Assembly (NCBI GenBank): GCA_003168375.1
Contig: PMSI01000004.1
Location: forward strand, 62,001-126,000
Length of the DNA: 64,000 nucleotides
Direction: 5' to 3'
From: Vulcanimicrobiota bacterium
GTDB taxonomy: Bacteria; Vulcanimicrobiota; Vulcanimicrobiia; Vulcanimicrobiales; Vulcanimicrobiaceae
The notes under the pieces: generated by a model
The model's database searches: none
The model's input: only the letters and a program-made list of their open reading frames with translations
What the model was told of the DNA's origin: nothing
Position numbers and translations under genes: made by a program
Shown here: positions 1,370 to 54,596 of the stretch, one piece after another
How positions within the stretch are numbered: the stretch's first letter is position 1
How the letters are laid out: each line of letters opens with the position of its first letter

Positions 1370-1479
1370 GATTGGACCTTCCGATGTCGACGGGGTTGTA
1401 ACCGCGGGATTTCGCCTGATGAATGATTCGTGGGATGACCGGGACTCGAACCCGGACGCCGTCGCCGGCTGCAGATTTT

Positions 1480-1744
1480 CGCACCACTTCGGCTTTCGCC
1501 GCCCGACCCGCCCTTCGACAAACTCAGGGTAACAGGAAGGTTCGTGGTCCGGACTGTGCCTTGACCGTGCTCGTTCGCCATCGCGAAGGAGGTTAGGCCG
1601 CGCCCGTCCAGTCTCTACACCTTCAGGTTCGCAGCAGTAGCCGCGAACGAGCTTGGCTCGGCGTTGTCGTGCGGAGGCCGCGACGAGTTCACCGACTTTG
1701 AGCGCATCCCGGCCGGTGTTTCCAGCCGGCCGGCTCAGGATTCC
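1480..1744 (-). ncRNA. Group I self-splicing intron (IC3-like) in tRNA-Leu
   Basis: A 265-nt insertion splits the anticodon loop. Read on the minus strand it carries the conserved group I core. There is a GGGATG...TCAAAGTCGG segment near 1707-1686 (P/Q region), a CAACGCCGAGCCAAGC segment near 1670-1650 typical of the P5/P6 side of tRNA introns, the R element GGTGTAGAGACTGGACGG near 1622-1605, and the S element AAGGCACAGTCC near 1562-1550. The two last elements form P7. The exon ends in T for the usual U-G pair at the 5' splice site, and the intron ends in G. The core closely resembles the Azoarcus tRNA-Ile intron as I recall it. No homing endonuclease is encoded. Splicing in vivo is inferred. 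Confidence 0.9.
1511..1528 (+). repeat. Dispersed 18-bp repeat, copy 1, inside the intron
   Basis: CCCTTCGACAAACTCAGG, differing by one base from the copies at 47243-47260 and 48246-48263. It sits in the 3' part of the intron between the S element and the last base, so presumably in a P9-type peripheral domain. Confidence 0.7.
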
Positions 1745-1761
1745 AAGTCTGCTGTGTCTGC

Positions 1762-2742
1762 CTATTCCACCATCATCCCGCCGCCGTCATTCGCGCCGTG
1801 GCCGGTTGGTCCCGGCGGGAGCGGGACGGCCCGGAACGCTGGGGACGTCAGGTACCCGAGGAGCAGGTCGGCTTCGCTGACGGTGAAGCGGTCGACGCCG
1901 AGGATGCGGCAGGCCTCGTCGACGACGATCAGCCCGGCCGGTAGGATGTCCGCGCGCTGCGGGCGGATCTGCGGCATCGCTTTGCGCGCGTCGAGGTCGC
2001 GGGCGAGGAGCGCGTCGATCAGACGGCGGGCGTCGTCGCGCGTCATCGTCGCGCCGTCGCGAACGTCCCCGGCGACCATCGCGGCTGCGGTAAACACCGT
2101 CCCGCCGACCGCGATCAGCTCCTCGAATCCCCGCAGCTCGGCGAACGGTGCGAGGACCATGGCCGCGTCGGCGCGCGCCTCCGCTTCGAGCGCGCGCCGC
2201 TCGCTCTCGCCCAGCGCGTGCTCACCGAGCAGCGCCGGATGGCGTTCGGAGAGGCGTACCGCGCCGATCTCGAGCGAGATCGCGCGCTGCACCGTGCCGC
2301 TCGCCCGGGCGCGGGCCGGGTGGTCCACGGCGAGCTCGGCGCTGCCGCCGCCGACGTCGAGCACCCCGACCGCCCCGCCGCCCTCGCGCCCCGCGGTCGC
2401 GCCGAGGAACGAGTAGGTCGCCTCTTCCGCACCGCTCAGGATGCGCGGCGCGACGCCGACCCGGGCGGCGATCTCGTCGCCGAATCCGACGCCGTCGGAT
2501 GCGCGGCGCAGCGCGCTGGTCGCGATCGCGTCGACCGCCCCGGCACCGAGACGGCGTGCAAGCGCGACGTAGTCGTCAATCGCCGCGAGCGTGCGGTCGC
2601 GCGCTGCCGCGTCGATCGTGCCGGTGACGCCGATCCCGGTGCCGATCCGCGTCCCGCGCGAATCCGCGGCGAGACGGCGCTCACCGTCCTGGACGAGCAG
2701 TCGGGTCGAGTTCGTCCCGATCGACACCAGTGCGCGGATCAC
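1762..2742 (-). CDS. Ppx/GppA-family phosphatase (short form)
   Basis: A protein of 326 residues belonging to the exopolyphosphatase / guanosine pentaphosphate phosphohydrolase family, which hydrolyses inorganic polyphosphate or pppGpp in the cytoplasm. The N-terminal phosphate-binding loop reads SIGTNSTRLLVQDG, the middle has ATSALRRA, and DVGGGSAEL is the second phosphate loop; AVGGT is present later. Only the catalytic Ppx domain is present; the C-terminal HD domain of long Ppx proteins is missing, which is normal for the short subfamily. The GTG at 2742 is chosen because it places the phosphate loop eight residues in; an ATG at 2781 is the alternative and would overlap the divergent HAD gene. 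Its stop lies inside the tRNA-Leu 5' exon. Confidence 0.9.
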   Translation of the reverse strand: MIRALVSIGTNSTRLLVQDGERRLAADSRGTRIGTGIGVTGTIDAAARDRTLAAIDDYVALARRLGAGAVDAIATSALRRASDGVGFGDEIAARVGVAPRILSGAEEATYSFLGATAGREGGGAVGVLDVGGGSAELAVDHPARARASGTVQRAISLEIGAVRLSERHPALLGEHALGESERRALEAEARADAAMVLAPFAELRGFEELIAVGGTVFTAAAMVAGDVRDGATMTRDDARRLIDALLARDLDARKAMPQIRPQRADILPAGLIVVDEACRILGVDRFTVSEADLLLGYLTSPAFRAVPLPPGPTGHGANDGGGMMVE

Positions 2743-49451: not shown

Positions 49452-50618
49452 TCAGACGCGCGCCCGCCGGAGCGGCCGCGCGGTCTCTTCGAGCCGGTAC
49501 TCAGAACGCCGGAGCTCGCGGCTATACCGCCGGAACGCGGGCGCGTCGACGAAACCTGCCGCGCCGGGGAGCAGCCGCACGACGAGCCATGCGCAGGTGC
49601 CGCCGACGACGATCACCGTCAGCGGATCGAAGCGCAGGAGCGGCGAGAGGAACAACAGTGGTGCCACGAGGGCGAGCCCGAACAGCAGCCGCGTGCGGTA
49701 CGGTTCGGCGAGCGCGGCCGCGGTGAAGCCGATCATCGGGAGCGCGAGCACGGCGTCGTACGCCCACGCATGCGGGCTCAGCGCGAGGCCGGCCAGGCAG
49801 GCGGCGCTGCCCGCCTCGACCGCCGTCGCTCGCCGCAGCGCGACCGCGACGGCGGCGGCCGCGAGCACGACGATCGCGATGGTGACCGCGCTGCCGAGAC
49901 CCGCCCGCGCGAGCTGTCCCGGGAGGCCGATCGCGAACGCACCGTTCACGCCCAGATCGCCGCTTGCGAACCGCGCGATGAGCCGCAGCCAGGCCGCCGG
50001 CCACGCCCAGTCGCCGCCCGCCGCGGGCACACCGAGCAGGAACCATCCGAGCGCGATCGCGCCCACGACGCCGAGCTCGCGCAGTCGTCCGCGGAGCACC
50101 AGCAGGCCGATGAACGGCAGCGCGTACGTCGGCTTGTAGAGCAGAAAGCCGATCGGCACCGCGGTCAGCGCGACGGAGCGCGTGGCCATCCCGGCGATCG
50201 ACAGCTGCGCCAGCAGCAAACCGAACGGCGCATTCTGGCCGATGATCCCGGCAGCATACACGACCGGCGGCCACAGCACGAACGTCGCGACCGACGTCGC
50301 GCGCGGCAGCGCGTAGGTGCGCGACGCGACGACCCCCGCCGTCGCCGCGCACCCGAGCATCACCACGATGTTCACCACGAAGCTCGCGGCGAGCGGCACC
50401 GCGACGAACGGGACCATCGCCCACGCGGCGCCCGGGAGGTAGAAGAACGCTTGCCACGCCTGCGGTGGATCGAGCAACGCATGGCTCCCCACCAGCGAAC
50501 CAGCCGCGACGAACACTTGCCAGTCGCCGCCGTGATGCGCGATCGACCACGGCGCGGCGCTCAGGATCAGCGCCGCGAAGGCAATGGACCACACCCACAG
50601 CACCGCGCGCAGCATCAC
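49452..50618 (-). CDS. GT87-like polyprenol-dependent membrane glycosyltransferase
   Basis: A 388-residue protein with about ten helices. DWQVFVAAGSLVGSHALLDPPQAW near 32 supplies an acidic residue in the first outer loop, as in GT87 (DUF2029) mannosyltransferases; FLLYKPTYALP near 158 and SPHAWAYDAVLALP near 282 are further GT87-like loops. GT87 enzymes use polyprenyl-phosphate sugars and act on the outer face of the membrane. It is the last gene of an overlapping operon that begins with pilus genes. Confidence 0.82.
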   Translation of the reverse strand: MMLRAVLWVWSIAFAALILSAAPWSIAHHGGDWQVFVAAGSLVGSHALLDPPQAWQAFFYLPGAAWAMVPFVAVPLAASFVVNIVVMLGCAATAGVVASRTYALPRATSVATFVLWPPVVYAAGIIGQNAPFGLLLAQLSIAGMATRSVALTAVPIGFLLYKPTYALPFIGLLVLRGRLRELGVVGAIALGWFLLGVPAAGGDWAWPAAWLRLIARFASGDLGVNGAFAIGLPGQLARAGLGSAVTIAIVVLAAAAVAVALRRATAVEAGSAACLAGLALSPHAWAYDAVLALPMIGFTAAALAEPYRTRLLFGLALVAPLLFLSPLLRFDPLTVIVVGGTCAWLVVRLLPGAAGFVDAPAFRRYSRELRRSEYRLEETARPLRRARV

Positions 50619-51742
50619 GTCTCGGCCGCCAGCGGATAGGCGGCGCGCGCGCGTTTCTGCGACGGGTTGCGCAGCAGCAACTCGCGTACGCGCCGCCGCA
50701 TCGGCTGCTCGACGCCGTGGTAGAGTGCGAAGCTCAGTGCGAGCGTCGCACCGAACGCAAGCGGCAGCACGAACGGGCGATCCCAGCCGGCGCGCTCGGC
50801 GACCATGACGACCGCAAGGTGGCAGAGATAGAACGCGAAGCTGATCTCACCAAGCCGCACCGGCACGGGATGCGACAAGACGCGCGAGAGCGCACCGCCC
50901 TGGCGCGCGAACACGAAGATGACCGCCGCCCATGCCGGCATCACCCACGCCGAGAAGCGCACGGAGAGGGGGACGAACGGGGAGACGTACACCAGCAGGC
51001 ACACCGCCGCGAGCGCGAGGATCTCCAGGCTCGTCGCCCGCAGCGGCCAGCGCTTGCGTGCGTCGCTGTGAACGAACGCGATTCCGAGCATCATCCCGAC
51101 CACGAACTCGACCAGGCGGCTGGGCGGAAACACGTACCACCGCCAGTCGTCGACCGCCGCCTCCTGCGGCCAGAGCACCGCGAGCTGGACGAACCACAAC
51201 GCGGCGGCGCACAGGAGCACGCGATGCGGGGGCACCGCACGAAACGCGCGCAGCAAGCCGTACGCCAGCAGCGGGAACGCGGCATAGAAGAACGCTTCGA
51301 CCGAGATGCTCCACGCCGGCCCGTTCGCACCGAAGTAGATCGGCCCGACCGGTATCCAACTCTGGACGAGCGCTGCTTGCGCGGCGATCGCCTGCAGCCG
51401 CGTCGGCGCGCCGGCACCGTTCCAGAGCGGGCTCGTCCCGAGCGCGACGAGGCCCGCGATCGCAAGCGGCATCGTCGCGAGGTGGAGCGGATAGATCCGC
51501 GCGATCCGCGCGGCATAGAACGCGCGGACCGCGCCGGCCCGAAGACGACCGCGGAAGCTGCCGTGGTAGCTATACGTCAGGATGAAGCCGGAGAGCAGAA
51601 AGAAGAATGCGACGCCGAGGTAGCCGAACGAGAACATCACCGAGATGCGGCGCGTCGGAACACAGTGCCACGAGAAGACGAGGAGCGCCGCAACGAACCG
51701 CAACGAGGTCAGCGGGAGCAGCGCGCCTCGCGGCTCCGTCAT
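50615..51742 (-). CDS. Acyltransferase family 3 (OafA/YrhL-like)
   Basis: A 375-residue membrane O-acyltransferase with ten helices. LTSLRFVAALLVFSWHC near 10-26 has the catalytic His; RIARIYPLHL near 79 is the conserved Arg region; NGPAWSISVEAFFYAAFPL near 142 is the family block. These enzymes acetylate or succinylate sugars of surface glycans. ATG at 51742 overlaps the stop of the next upstream gene, and its own stop overlaps the GT87-like gene. Confidence 0.93.
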   Translation of the reverse strand: MTEPRGALLPLTSLRFVAALLVFSWHCVPTRRISVMFSFGYLGVAFFFLLSGFILTYSYHGSFRGRLRAGAVRAFYAARIARIYPLHLATMPLAIAGLVALGTSPLWNGAGAPTRLQAIAAQAALVQSWIPVGPIYFGANGPAWSISVEAFFYAAFPLLAYGLLRAFRAVPPHRVLLCAAALWFVQLAVLWPQEAAVDDWRWYVFPPSRLVEFVVGMMLGIAFVHSDARKRWPLRATSLEILALAAVCLLVYVSPFVPLSVRFSAWVMPAWAAVIFVFARQGGALSRVLSHPVPVRLGEISFAFYLCHLAVVMVAERAGWDRPFVLPLAFGATLALSFALYHGVEQPMRRRVRELLLRNPSQKRARAAYPLAAET

Positions 51743-53181
51743 CGCAGCGCTTCGGCGAGCACGGGCGGGCGTACGTAGAGCTCGGAGACGCGGTCGGTCG
51801 CGATGCGCCGCCACGTGCCGCCCCGTTCGGCGAGCAAGCTGTCGAGCGCGCCGTTCCGGCGCACGAGCACGGCATCGATCCGCTCGGCGTCGAGAATCGA
51901 CGCCCAGCCGCGGTTGCCGTCGATGACCTCCCGGTACTCGCGCCACACGCGCGCAGGATACGGATCGCAGCGGCCGTCCATGAAGAACCGTACCGGCTCG
52001 TTCAGAAAGACGCTGCACCACGCGAAGTCCTCGCAGAACACGCGCGGCGGCGTCCTCGACTCGGCGAGCAGCACTCGCGCGGTGCCCAGCGGGAGGCCCT
52101 CGCCCGCGAACGGAGCATAGCGCCACGTCGCGCCGCTCACGGCGGCGCCGCACACGACGGTTGCGGCCAGCGTCGCCCATGCAAACGCGCCGGTCCCGCG
52201 CGCCGCCACCGGTGCACGCGCTCGGCTGCGTGGGATCGCCGCGAGTGCGATCGGCGCGGCGACGATCGCGAACACCGGGACGTTCCTGACCGCCCCGAAC
52301 AACAGCACGGCGAACGCGACCGCGACGAGTCGGTCGCGCAGCGGCGTGCGCGCGCCGAACACCGCCAGCAGCAGCACGATCGGCAGCGCTCCGGCGACGA
52401 ACGCCGGGTTGCCCGCGCTGGTCGCGCCCCACTCGCTGATCGACGCGCGGATCGGGCTCGTGAGCAGGGCCGCGGCGTACCGCGCCAAGTCGAGCCCGAA
52501 CGGCGTCGCCAGCGTCGCAGCGGCACAGGCGATCGCGAGGGCGGTGCTGCGGCGCACCGCCGCCGACCACGCGCGTTCGCGCAGCGCCGCCCCGAGCGCG
52601 AACAGCGCGGCGAGAACCGGCGCCAGGAACGCGCTCGCGTGCAGGTTCGCCCAGACGACGGTGACCGGAACGGCGGCCCAGGCCCCGGGGCCTTCGAGTT
52701 CGAGCAGCCACGTGACGCTCGCGAGACAGGCCCAGCCCAGCACCTGAGCGCGCGCGCCGAACGACTGCATCGCCGCGAGCGCGCACAGCAGCACGGCGAC
52801 CGACGCACTCGCGTCGGAGACGCCGCGCCGGCGAGCGCGCAGCACGACCGTGGCGAGGACGACGCCGAACGCTAGCGCGCACAGCAGCGGTACGGCCCAG
52901 CTCGCGCCGCGCGCGCTCGTCCACGCCAATGCGGTCGAGAACAGCCACTCGTGCGGCGTCCACGGAGCCCCGTCCGCGGCGAACGTCTCCGGACCGAGCG
53001 CCCGCGGGATCGCGTGCTCGTGCAGCACGCGTTCGCCGAGCCAGCGCTGCCAGAGCAGATCGCCGTCACCGCGCGGCAAACGCAGGGCCAGCGCGGCGAA
53101 CCAGCCGACGACGAGCACGCAGCACGCCCACGGCAACAGCGCCGCGGGCCGGATGCGCCCGCGGGCCGGACCGGTGTTCAC
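51739..53181 (-). CDS. Polytopic membrane protein, glycosyltransferase-like
   Basis: A 480-residue protein with about ten helices and a soluble C-terminal domain of about 120 residues. GDGDLLWQRWLGERVLHEHAIP near 38 and WTPHEWLFSTALAW near 73 resemble the first outer loop of GT-C enzymes, in which acidic and His residues bind the sugar-lipid. The tail has VFCEDFAWCSVFLNEPVRFFMDGRCDPYP, with three Cys that could be disulfide-linked outside the cell. Probable oligosaccharyl or polyprenol-sugar transferase; not proven. Confidence 0.72.
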   Translation of the reverse strand: MNTGPARGRIRPAALLPWACCVLVVGWFAALALRLPRGDGDLLWQRWLGERVLHEHAIPRALGPETFAADGAPWTPHEWLFSTALAWTSARGASWAVPLLCALAFGVVLATVVLRARRRGVSDASASVAVLLCALAAMQSFGARAQVLGWACLASVTWLLELEGPGAWAAVPVTVVWANLHASAFLAPVLAALFALGAALRERAWSAAVRRSTALAIACAAATLATPFGLDLARYAAALLTSPIRASISEWGATSAGNPAFVAGALPIVLLLAVFGARTPLRDRLVAVAFAVLLFGAVRNVPVFAIVAAPIALAAIPRSRARAPVAARGTGAFAWATLAATVVCGAAVSGATWRYAPFAGEGLPLGTARVLLAESRTPPRVFCEDFAWCSVFLNEPVRFFMDGRCDPYPARVWREYREVIDGNRGWASILDAERIDAVLVRRNGALDSLLAERGGTWRRIATDRVSELYVRPPVLAEALR

Positions 53182-54596
53182 GGTGCGCTGCCCACGGGAA
53201 GGGCGGCGAGAGGCGCGCGCACGCGGCGCAGCGCGTCACCGTATGCGACCGCCGCGATCGCGACCAAGCCGCACGCGAGGCCGGCGAAGGTCGGCAGGCG
53301 CAGCCACTGCATCATCGCAGAGGGCCGCATCAGCGCCGCGCGCGAGAATTCGCCCCAGCTCAACTCTGCCAGCGCGTCCGGAGGGTACACGTGCGGTACG
53401 AAGTGCACGGGCGCGGGACCGAGTCCCAGCGCCGCCAGCACGACGACCGAGCACACGACGCCCGCGGCGCCGATGGCGAAAACGATCCCGGCGCGGCGCC
53501 CGAGCGTCAGGCCGCCGAGCCCGCCGGCGAGCAGCGGCGCGAACCCGGCCAGCACGCTCGATCCCATCACGTTCCAGGGGATCATGGCGAGCGCCAGGCC
53601 GGCGATCGCCGGCGCTCGCACCCGCGGATCGCGCACCGCGACGTAGAGGATCGCCGGAAACGCGACCGCGATCTGCTGGAAGTGCACGTGCACGCCGCCG
53701 AACACGGCGAACGCCGGCGGCACGATCACCATGACCGCCGCGTCGCCGGTCAGAGCCCGAAGCCGGTTCGCGACGACGACCCCGAGGACCAGCATCGCCG
53801 CGAACTCCACCTCGCCCCAGCGCACCGCCGCCGAGATCGACACGCCGAGCGACGTGAGGAGCGAGGTCAGGCTGAACTGCCACTCGTAGGCATTGGCGAG
53901 CGCATGCGCGGGTACGACGTCGCGCACGTATGCGATGAACGCCGGCAGGCCGACCGCGCCGGCGCTCGCGAGGGCCAGGCCGGCCCCGCACAGCAGCAGC
54001 GGGAGGCGCGTGCGCGGAACGGCCGCCAGCATTCCGACGATCGCGGCGAGCGCGACGTGCGGTTCGATGCTCGCCAGCGCGACGCAGGCCGACGCCGCGA
54101 TCCAATGCCCGCGACGGGCGAGCAGCGCGGCGCCGCCTAGCGCGGCGAAGACGAACGGCATCGGCTGGCCGACGTAGTACGTCACCGTCGCGGTGATCGC
54201 CGCCAGCGAAAGATTCAGCATCGCGCTCGAAGCGCCGGTGACGCGCTGCAGCAGCGCGACCGCGAGCGTCATCGACGCGATCATCAGCGCACCGTAGCAC
54301 AGCGCGGCGAGCGGGAACGGCAGCAGCGCGAACGGGACGAACAGCAGCAGCGCATACGGCGGCAGCGGCGCGGGGAGCGCGACCGGCCGCAGGAACGCCG
54401 GTTCCGCGGGCGGTCCCGCCGTCGCCTCACAGCTGCGCAGCGGCTCTTCGAGGTACGGATTTGCGCCGTGCGCGATCGCGCTTCCGGCGCAGTAGAACGC
54501 GCGGAAGTCCCCCATGAGATACGTCTGGCCGGCGGGCGGGTTGAGCGCGATCATCACCGCCAGCAGCGCCGGGGCGATGAACCACGTCCAACGCAC
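53178..54596 (-). CDS. GT87-like polyprenol-dependent membrane glycosyltransferase
   Basis: A 472-residue protein with about eleven helices. GDFRAFYCAGSAIAHGANPYLEEPLRSCE near 30-58 is the GT87 first loop with the conserved Asp and the Asn-Pro-Tyr. TVTYYVGQPMPFVFA near 145 and ALASIEPHVALAA near 178 are the usual later blocks (YxxGQ, PH). The GTG at 54596 is chosen because GGGAG lies five bases before it. It starts 14 bases after the TadE gene ends, so it belongs to the pilus transcript. Confidence 0.82.
   Translation of the reverse strand: MRWTWFIAPALLAVMIALNPPAGQTYLMGDFRAFYCAGSAIAHGANPYLEEPLRSCEATAGPPAEPAFLRPVALPAPLPPYALLLFVPFALLPFPLAALCYGALMIASMTLAVALLQRVTGASSAMLNLSLAAITATVTYYVGQPMPFVFAALGGAALLARRGHWIAASACVALASIEPHVALAAIVGMLAAVPRTRLPLLLCGAGLALASAGAVGLPAFIAYVRDVVPAHALANAYEWQFSLTSLLTSLGVSISAAVRWGEVEFAAMLVLGVVVANRLRALTGDAAVMVIVPPAFAVFGGVHVHFQQIAVAFPAILYVAVRDPRVRAPAIAGLALAMIPWNVMGSSVLAGFAPLLAGGLGGLTLGRRAGIVFAIGAAGVVCSVVVLAALGLGPAPVHFVPHVYPPDALAELSWGEFSRAALMRPSAMMQWLRLPTFAGLACGLVAIAAVAYGDALRRVRAPLAALPVGSAP

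What the first reader, a model, noticed from the sequence alone, without database searches (positions are those of the whole stretch)
1431..1779. tRNA-Leu(UAA) with a 265-nt group I intron in the anticodon
Both tRNA halves and the whole conserved intron core are readable, and the insertion lies after U34, the position known from cyanobacteria and plastids. The intron core, however, resembles the proteobacterial Azoarcus tRNA-Ile intron. Finding it in what appears to be a different phylum bears on whether this intron is ancient or has moved. It is easily missed by tRNA finders that expect uninterrupted genes.
Basis: partly seen in the sequence, partly recalled or inferred. Interest (0 to 1): 0.7.

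Follow-up and report, generated by a model that had tools for sequence, protein, structure and literature searches.

The report
Self-splicing intron in a tRNA-Leu gene
The only tRNA this bacterium (phylum Vulcanimicrobiota/Eremiobacterota) has for reading the leucine codon UUA is interrupted by a small RNA that must cut itself out; the same kind of intron, at the same spot, was known from cyanobacteria and chloroplasts, and turns out to be old in this phylum and to sit also in other phyla and in giant phages.

Summary
On the minus strand, window 1779-1745 and 1479-1431 are the halves of tRNA-Leu(UAA). They are split after U34 by a 265-nt intron (1744-1480), which has a complete group I (IC3-type) core. 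A covariance model trained without the window's genus finds it at 120 bits (E 4e-31). Rfam's general model misses it. No other tRNA-Leu(UAA) was found in the 97%-complete genome, so splicing should be essential (inferred). The host is Vulcanimicrobiota (Eremiobacterota). Fifty of 149 genomes of the phylum carry the intron and 38 have the uninterrupted gene; none has both. The gene usually lies next to ppx, with or without the intron. All 47 intron cores used form one clade (100/99) apart from 151 relatives, so the intron entered this lineage once or is ancestral, and was lost repeatedly. The Azoarcus likeness is not specific. Same-site tRNA-Leu introns also occur in Pseudomonadota, Acidobacteriota, Bacteroidota, Bacillota and phages, including the isolate Atu_ph07 and a 595-kb phage whose intron carries an HNH endonuclease gene. 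Phages are thus a plausible, unproven route of spread. Splicing itself was not tested. This is a new member of a known kind.

The parts
1745..1779 (-). 5' exon of tRNA-Leu(UAA), positions 1-34, ending C32-U33-U34
   Evidence: ARAGORN with introns allowed; 48 of 48 related introns follow CTT
1480..1744 (-). group I intron, IC3-type, 265 nt, ending in G
   Evidence: ARAGORN; model R1 120.3 bits, E 4e-31 over 1710-1546; ends in G in 48/48
1431..1479 (-). 3' exon of tRNA-Leu(UAA) from A35 to the acceptor stem
   Evidence: ARAGORN cloverleaf of the joined exons, 85 nt
1734..1736 (-). internal guide sequence GAG, pairs with exon C32-U33-U34 to form P1 with a U-G pair at the 5' splice site
   Evidence: read from sequence; GAGCC present near the 5' end of 48/48 introns
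1718..1723 (-). P2 loop with GAAA tetraloop
   Evidence: sequence position; pattern in 47/48
1700..1705 (-). P3 5' strand GCGCTC
   Evidence: pairs with 1600-1605; invariant in A1, 6 of 6 pairs in 31/31
1600..1605 (-). P3 3' strand GGGCGC
   Evidence: as above
1691..1695 (-). P4 5' strand TCGGT, pairs with 1658-1662
   Evidence: 100% paired in alignment A1
1658..1662 (-). P4 3' strand GCCGA
1609..1613 (-). P7 5' strand GACTG (guanosine-binding helix), pairs across P3 with 1552-1556 as a pseudoknot
   Evidence: 5 of 5 pairs in 31/31 sequences
1552..1556 (-). P7 3' strand CAGTC
1490..1501 (-). terminal P9 hairpin CGGCGAAAGCCG with GAAA tetraloop
   Evidence: sequence position; similar hairpin in 46/48
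1511..1529 (.). dispersed palindromic REP-like repeat CCCTTCGACAAACTCAGGG lodged in the P9 extension of the intron
   Evidence: 195 copies with up to 2 mismatches in the genome, reversed control 0; same repeat in P5 of L080 and P6 of L087
1762..2823 (-). ppx/gppA-like gene next to the tRNA; its stop codon lies inside the tRNA D-loop; conserved neighbour of this tRNA locus
   Evidence: Pfam PF02541, E 1.7e-33; ORF; found beside the tRNA in many related loci

Best explanation
[quoted passage not shown] Inferred mechanism, from known group I introns: exon CUU pairs with the intron's GAG to form P1; a guanosine bound in P7 attacks after U34; the freed 5' exon attacks after the terminal G, joining U34 to A35 and giving a functional UAA anticodon loop. 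The intron has no endonuclease gene of its own, so it is not mobile by itself. In this class of Vulcanimicrobiota it descends from one entry (or from an ancestor), stays at the ppx-linked locus, and has been lost many times, by precise removal or by replacement of the tRNA gene.
For: Exact exons and cloverleaf; independent model hit with E 4e-31; covariation in P5, P6a and P8, and near-complete conservation of P3, P4 and P7; CTT at the 5' exon end, GAG guide and terminal G in 48/48 introns; no other tRNA-Leu(UAA) found in the genome; 50 genomes with the intron and 38 with the uninterrupted gene, none with both; one clade of 47 at 100/99, against 151 other introns; shared ppx neighbour with and without the intron, including the intron-free congeners G119 and G127; at least 6 and probably 8 presence/absence changes on the ppx tree; intron and ppx distances correlate (Spearman 0.26, 5 of 5000 permutations as high).
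Against: No RNA evidence of splicing. The genome is 97% complete, so a second tRNA-Leu(UAA) in a gap cannot be excluded. MFE folding of the 349-nt precursor does not return the native core (z -2.1), as expected for a pseudoknotted GC-rich ribozyme. The intron-ppx correlation is weak, so some transfer within the phylum is possible. The intron tree rests on about 129 columns and its bootstrap had not settled.
Confidence: 0.88

Rival explanations
1. The intron was acquired recently by lateral transfer from a proteobacterium with an Azoarcus-type intron, and says nothing about age.
For: Core motifs are shared with proteobacterial IC3 introns, and same-site tRNA-Leu introns are common in Alphaproteobacteria.
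Against: The window's core is about 79% (mean) to 95% (best) identical to relatives in its own class but at most 74% to any intron outside the phylum. All 47 cores form one clade on a long stem. The locus is the native ppx-linked one.
Confidence: 0.05
2. The intron was inherited vertically from a common ancestor of Vulcanimicrobiota and Cyanobacteria, and the cyanobacterial and plastid tRNA-Leu introns are its orthologues.
For: Same tRNA, same position, same IC3 type, ORF-less, mosaic presence with losses, as described for cyanobacteria (PMC4476775).
Against: In the phylum it was found only in the window's class (families f1 and f3), not in the deeper families f4-f16. Same-site introns in Pseudomonadota, Bacteroidota, Bacillota and phages make site-specific transfer the simpler account. 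No cyanobacterial sequence could be fetched for the tree.
Confidence: 0.12
3. The interrupted gene is a non-functional relic, and leucine UUA is read by another tRNA.
For: No expression data.
Against: Exons keep perfect stems; the core is intact and under structural constraint across 48 copies; no other UAA tRNA was found.
Confidence: 0.02

Closest known systems
[quoted passage not shown]
   Same: Same tRNA, same position after U34, small ORF-less IC3-type intron, patchy presence explained by loss (position and type from general knowledge; loss pattern from PMC4476775).
   Different: Different phylum; GC-rich; R element GGTGTAGAGACTGGACGG instead of the cyanobacterial GGTGCAGAGACTC (recalled); REP-like repeats instead of heptanucleotide repeats in peripheral loops.
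Azoarcus tRNA-Ile(CAU) IC3 intron and its betaproteobacterial relatives
   Same: IC3-type core, P2 and P9 GNRA loops, similar length.
   Different: Different tRNA and insertion point; a separate well-supported group on the tree; 67% mean core identity, no closer than other IC3 introns.
Alphaproteobacterial tRNA-Leu(UAA) and tRNA-Arg(CCU) IC3 introns
   Same: Same type; the tRNA-Leu introns sit at the same site.
   Different: Outside the Vulcanimicrobiota clade.
Phage tRNA-Leu(UAA) introns (Agrobacterium phage Atu_ph07, 735-kb and 595-kb uncultured phages)
   Same: Same tRNA, same site, same core.
   Different: AT-richer; these named-phage introns were not put on the tree, but the IMG/VR phage introns sampled lie outside the Vulcanimicrobiota clade; the 595-kb phage intron is 700 nt and carries an HNH endonuclease ORF.

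Membership tests
Group I intron (IC3 type) | Core of P3-P4-P6-P7-P8 with the P3/P7 pseudoknot | tested here: met
   Pair counts over 31 relatives; independent model hit on the window
Group I intron (IC3 type) | P1 with U-G pair at the 5' splice site and terminal guanosine | tested here: met
   CTT/GAG and final G in 48/48 introns
Group I intron (IC3 type) | GNRA loops L2 and L9 | tested here: met
   GAAA in both in the window; patterns in 47/48 and 46/48
Group I intron (IC3 type) | Match to the Rfam RF00028 model | tested here: not met
   No hit. Nawrocki et al. judged that one alignment would not capture group I diversity, and RF00028 gave no significant hits in their archaeal search (PMC6125680), so this counts little
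Group I intron (IC3 type) | Autocatalytic splicing with guanosine | not testable with these tools
   needs transcription and splicing assay
tRNA-Leu(UAA) intron of cyanobacteria and plastids | Insertion in tRNA-Leu(UAA) between U34 and A35 | tested here: met
tRNA-Leu(UAA) intron of cyanobacteria and plastids | Common descent with the cyanobacterial introns | not testable with these tools
   no cyanobacterial intron could be fetched (searches gave none); only a recalled Anabaena sequence was compared, as a lead
Azoarcus-type tRNA-Ile intron | Groups with tRNA-Ile-type (CAU) IC3 introns | tested here: not met
   separate clades
Mobile (homing) group I intron | Encodes a homing endonuclease | tested here: not met
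   265 nt; no ORF of 60 aa lies within the intron

The most novel reading that the evidence does not exclude
tRNA-Leu(UAA) IC3 introns circulate between bacterial phyla on phage-borne tRNA genes. Phage copies (some with a homing endonuclease gene) convert the host's uninterrupted tRNA-Leu, after which ORF-less copies persist for long times by vertical descent, as in Vulcanimicrobiota and possibly in cyanobacteria and plastids. That would mean the 'ancient' trnL intron was seeded by phages.
Probability: 0.3. Interest if true: 0.75.

Novelty: new member of a known kind. Interest (0 to 1): 0.52.

Why it matters
A 2014 review lists bacterial tRNA group I introns only for cyanobacteria and alpha-/betaproteobacteria (PMC4033280). 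This intron is an old, single-clade resident of another phylum, in an apparently single-copy essential tRNA, with natural pairs of close relatives that have and lack it at the same locus. With same-site introns in several more phyla and in phage genomes, the old question of whether the trnL intron is ancestral or mobile can be tested directly. It also shows that annotation overlooks such tRNAs.

Tried and rejected
Rfam search for group I introns, at gathering score and relaxed: no hit, though exons and core are plain. Search for an uninterrupted tRNA-Leu(UAA), including a 28-tRNA array: none. Plasmid and named-phage searches with the window intron: no real match. Attempts to obtain a cyanobacterial intron for the tree from viral contigs, plasmids and phages: none, so the cyanobacterial comparison rests on a recalled sequence and is only a lead. 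The Azoarcus link was tested and dropped. MFE folding does not show the core and was not used. ARAGORN isotypes such as Ser(AGA), Ser(GGA), Phe(GAA) and Phe(AAA) are mostly tRNA-Leu(UAA) read with a shifted splice site, judging from the junctions; they were not recounted.

Full report
What is there. On the minus strand, the two halves of a tRNA-Leu lie at window 1779-1745 and 1479-1431, separated by 265 nt. ARAGORN with introns allowed reports tRNA-Leu(taa) with the junction 'gactt-Intron-aaaat', and the joined exons form a complete cloverleaf. The insertion is after U34. Default ARAGORN and Rfam miss the gene.

Group I core. A DNA search of 149 genomes of the same phylum gave dozens of full-length relatives; 48 introns could be extracted with their exons. 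In all 48, the 5' exon ends in CTT, a GAG guide lies near the intron's 5' end, and the last base is G. In an alignment of 31 introns outside the window's genus, the proposed core is 98.3% paired; 81 cells change on both sides of a pair against 19.5 in shuffles, and slid versions pair at 30-40%. P3, P4 and P7 hardly vary, so the covariation comes from P5, P6a and P8. A model built from that alignment finds the window's intron at 120.3 bits, E 4e-31, its only hit in the 64 kb. The class (IC3) is assigned from the layout, the GNRA loops and the likeness to known IC3 motifs, partly from general knowledge.

Function. The genome (4.43 Mb, 97% complete) has tRNA-Leu with CAA, UAG, CAG and GAG anticodons but no other UAA. 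UUA decoding should therefore depend on splicing; this is inference, and no RNA data were available. The splicing steps given are those of known group I introns. The intron has no endonuclease ORF.

Host. Locus L126, from a record titled Candidatus Eremiobacterota (NCBI phylum Vulcanimicrobiota), lies on a contig of the same length as one in G089, which is in the window's own family, and both give the same model score. So the host is in Vulcanimicrobiota.

History in the phylum. Model R1 hits 54 of 149 genomes. In four of these (G020, G026, G027, G078) the only hit is a different, tRNA-fMet-type intron, leaving 50 with the tRNA-Leu intron; 38 genomes have the uninterrupted junction, and no genome has both. 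The tRNA usually lies beside a ppx/gppA gene. Two congeners, G119 and G127, have the uninterrupted gene at that locus, as do 9 of 14 further intron-free genomes sampled. Of the other five, three in family f3 carry a different tRNA-Leu gene with no ppx nearby, which suggests replacement. On a ppx tree, presence and absence change at least 6 and probably 8 times. In a tree of 198 cores, all 47 from this phylum form one clade (100/99), on a long stem, apart from 151 others. The simplest account is one entry, or ancestry within the class, followed by repeated loss; regain inside the phylum is not excluded. Intron and ppx distances correlate, but weakly (Spearman 0.26).

The Azoarcus likeness. Core identity of the window to tRNA-Ile-type (CAU) introns averages 67%, against 69% for tRNA-Arg(CCU), 66-68% for several tRNA-Leu sets, and 79-89% on average inside the class. 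The likeness reflects shared intron type, not a recent source.

Elsewhere. Same-site tRNA-Leu(UAA) introns are in Alpha-, Beta- and Gammaproteobacteria, Acidobacteriota, Bacteroidota and uncultured Bacilli. Contig assignment in MAGs was not checked. The same scan of IMG/VR gave 120 stretches, about 45 of them tRNA-Leu(UAA) with an intron; the viral nature of those contigs was not checked one by one. Named phage records settle that phages carry them: Agrobacterium phage Atu_ph07 (isolate, 490 kb), a 735-kb and a 595-kb uncultured phage have tRNA-Leu(UAA) introns at this site, and Gordonia phage Daredevil a tRNA-Lys intron. The 595-kb phage's intron encodes an HNH protein. The Atu_ph07 paper lists 33 tRNA genes and does not mention introns (PMC6102473), and a review states that phage group I introns were known only in protein genes (PMC3984707). 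I found no report of phage tRNA introns, but the library holds only open-licence papers.

Verdict. A well-supported new member of a known kind. The broader point, that phage tRNA genes may have spread tRNA-Leu introns among phyla, is a hypothesis (about 0.3): the phage introns put on the tree are not inside the Vulcanimicrobiota clade, and the direction of transfer is not shown.

Noticed in passing
window 1511-1529; G000 genome-wide; L080, L083, L087: A dispersed palindromic repeat, CCCTTCGACAARCTCAGGG (195 copies with up to 2 mismatches in the genome, reversed control 0), has entered different peripheral helices of the same intron in different species: P9 in the window, P5 in L080, P6 in L087, and a longer version in P5 of L083.
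   Followed up: partly
L342, L343, L344, L345, L346 (G027, G026, G020, G022, G078): Five genomes of the phylum carry a second group I intron, in what looks like initiator tRNA-Met; in L345 and L346 it encodes a PD-(D/E)XK endonuclease (PF11645, E about 3e-50) whose PDB match, 2OST (E 3.5e-59), I recall as I-SspI of the Synechocystis tRNA-fMet intron. The phylum thus holds both tRNA intron types known from cyanobacteria.
   Followed up: partly
L335 (Agrobacterium phage Atu_ph07), L336, L338, L337 (Gordonia phage Daredevil): Phage genomes with group I introns in tRNA genes; in L335 and L337 no tRNA is annotated in the stretch read (L336 and L338 records have no annotation). L338 carries an HNH ORF inside the intron.
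   Followed up: partly
L031, G000:C7:182.5-186.3 kb: An array of 28 tRNA genes in about 4 kb, many low-scoring and duplicating the chromosomal set, resembling arrays in mobile elements; it has no tRNA-Leu(UAA).
   Followed up: no
window 1762-1779: The ppx/gppA-like ORF ends with its stop codon inside the D-loop of the tRNA gene, so the two genes overlap by 18 nt.
   Followed up: no
window 50001-54000: Strong excess of A over T on the + strand (AT skew 0.36) at 70-75% GC; no tandem repeats found.
   Followed up: partly
L267, L289 (viral contigs): Viral contigs with two IC3-type introns each within a few kilobases, apparently in different tRNA genes.
   Followed up: no
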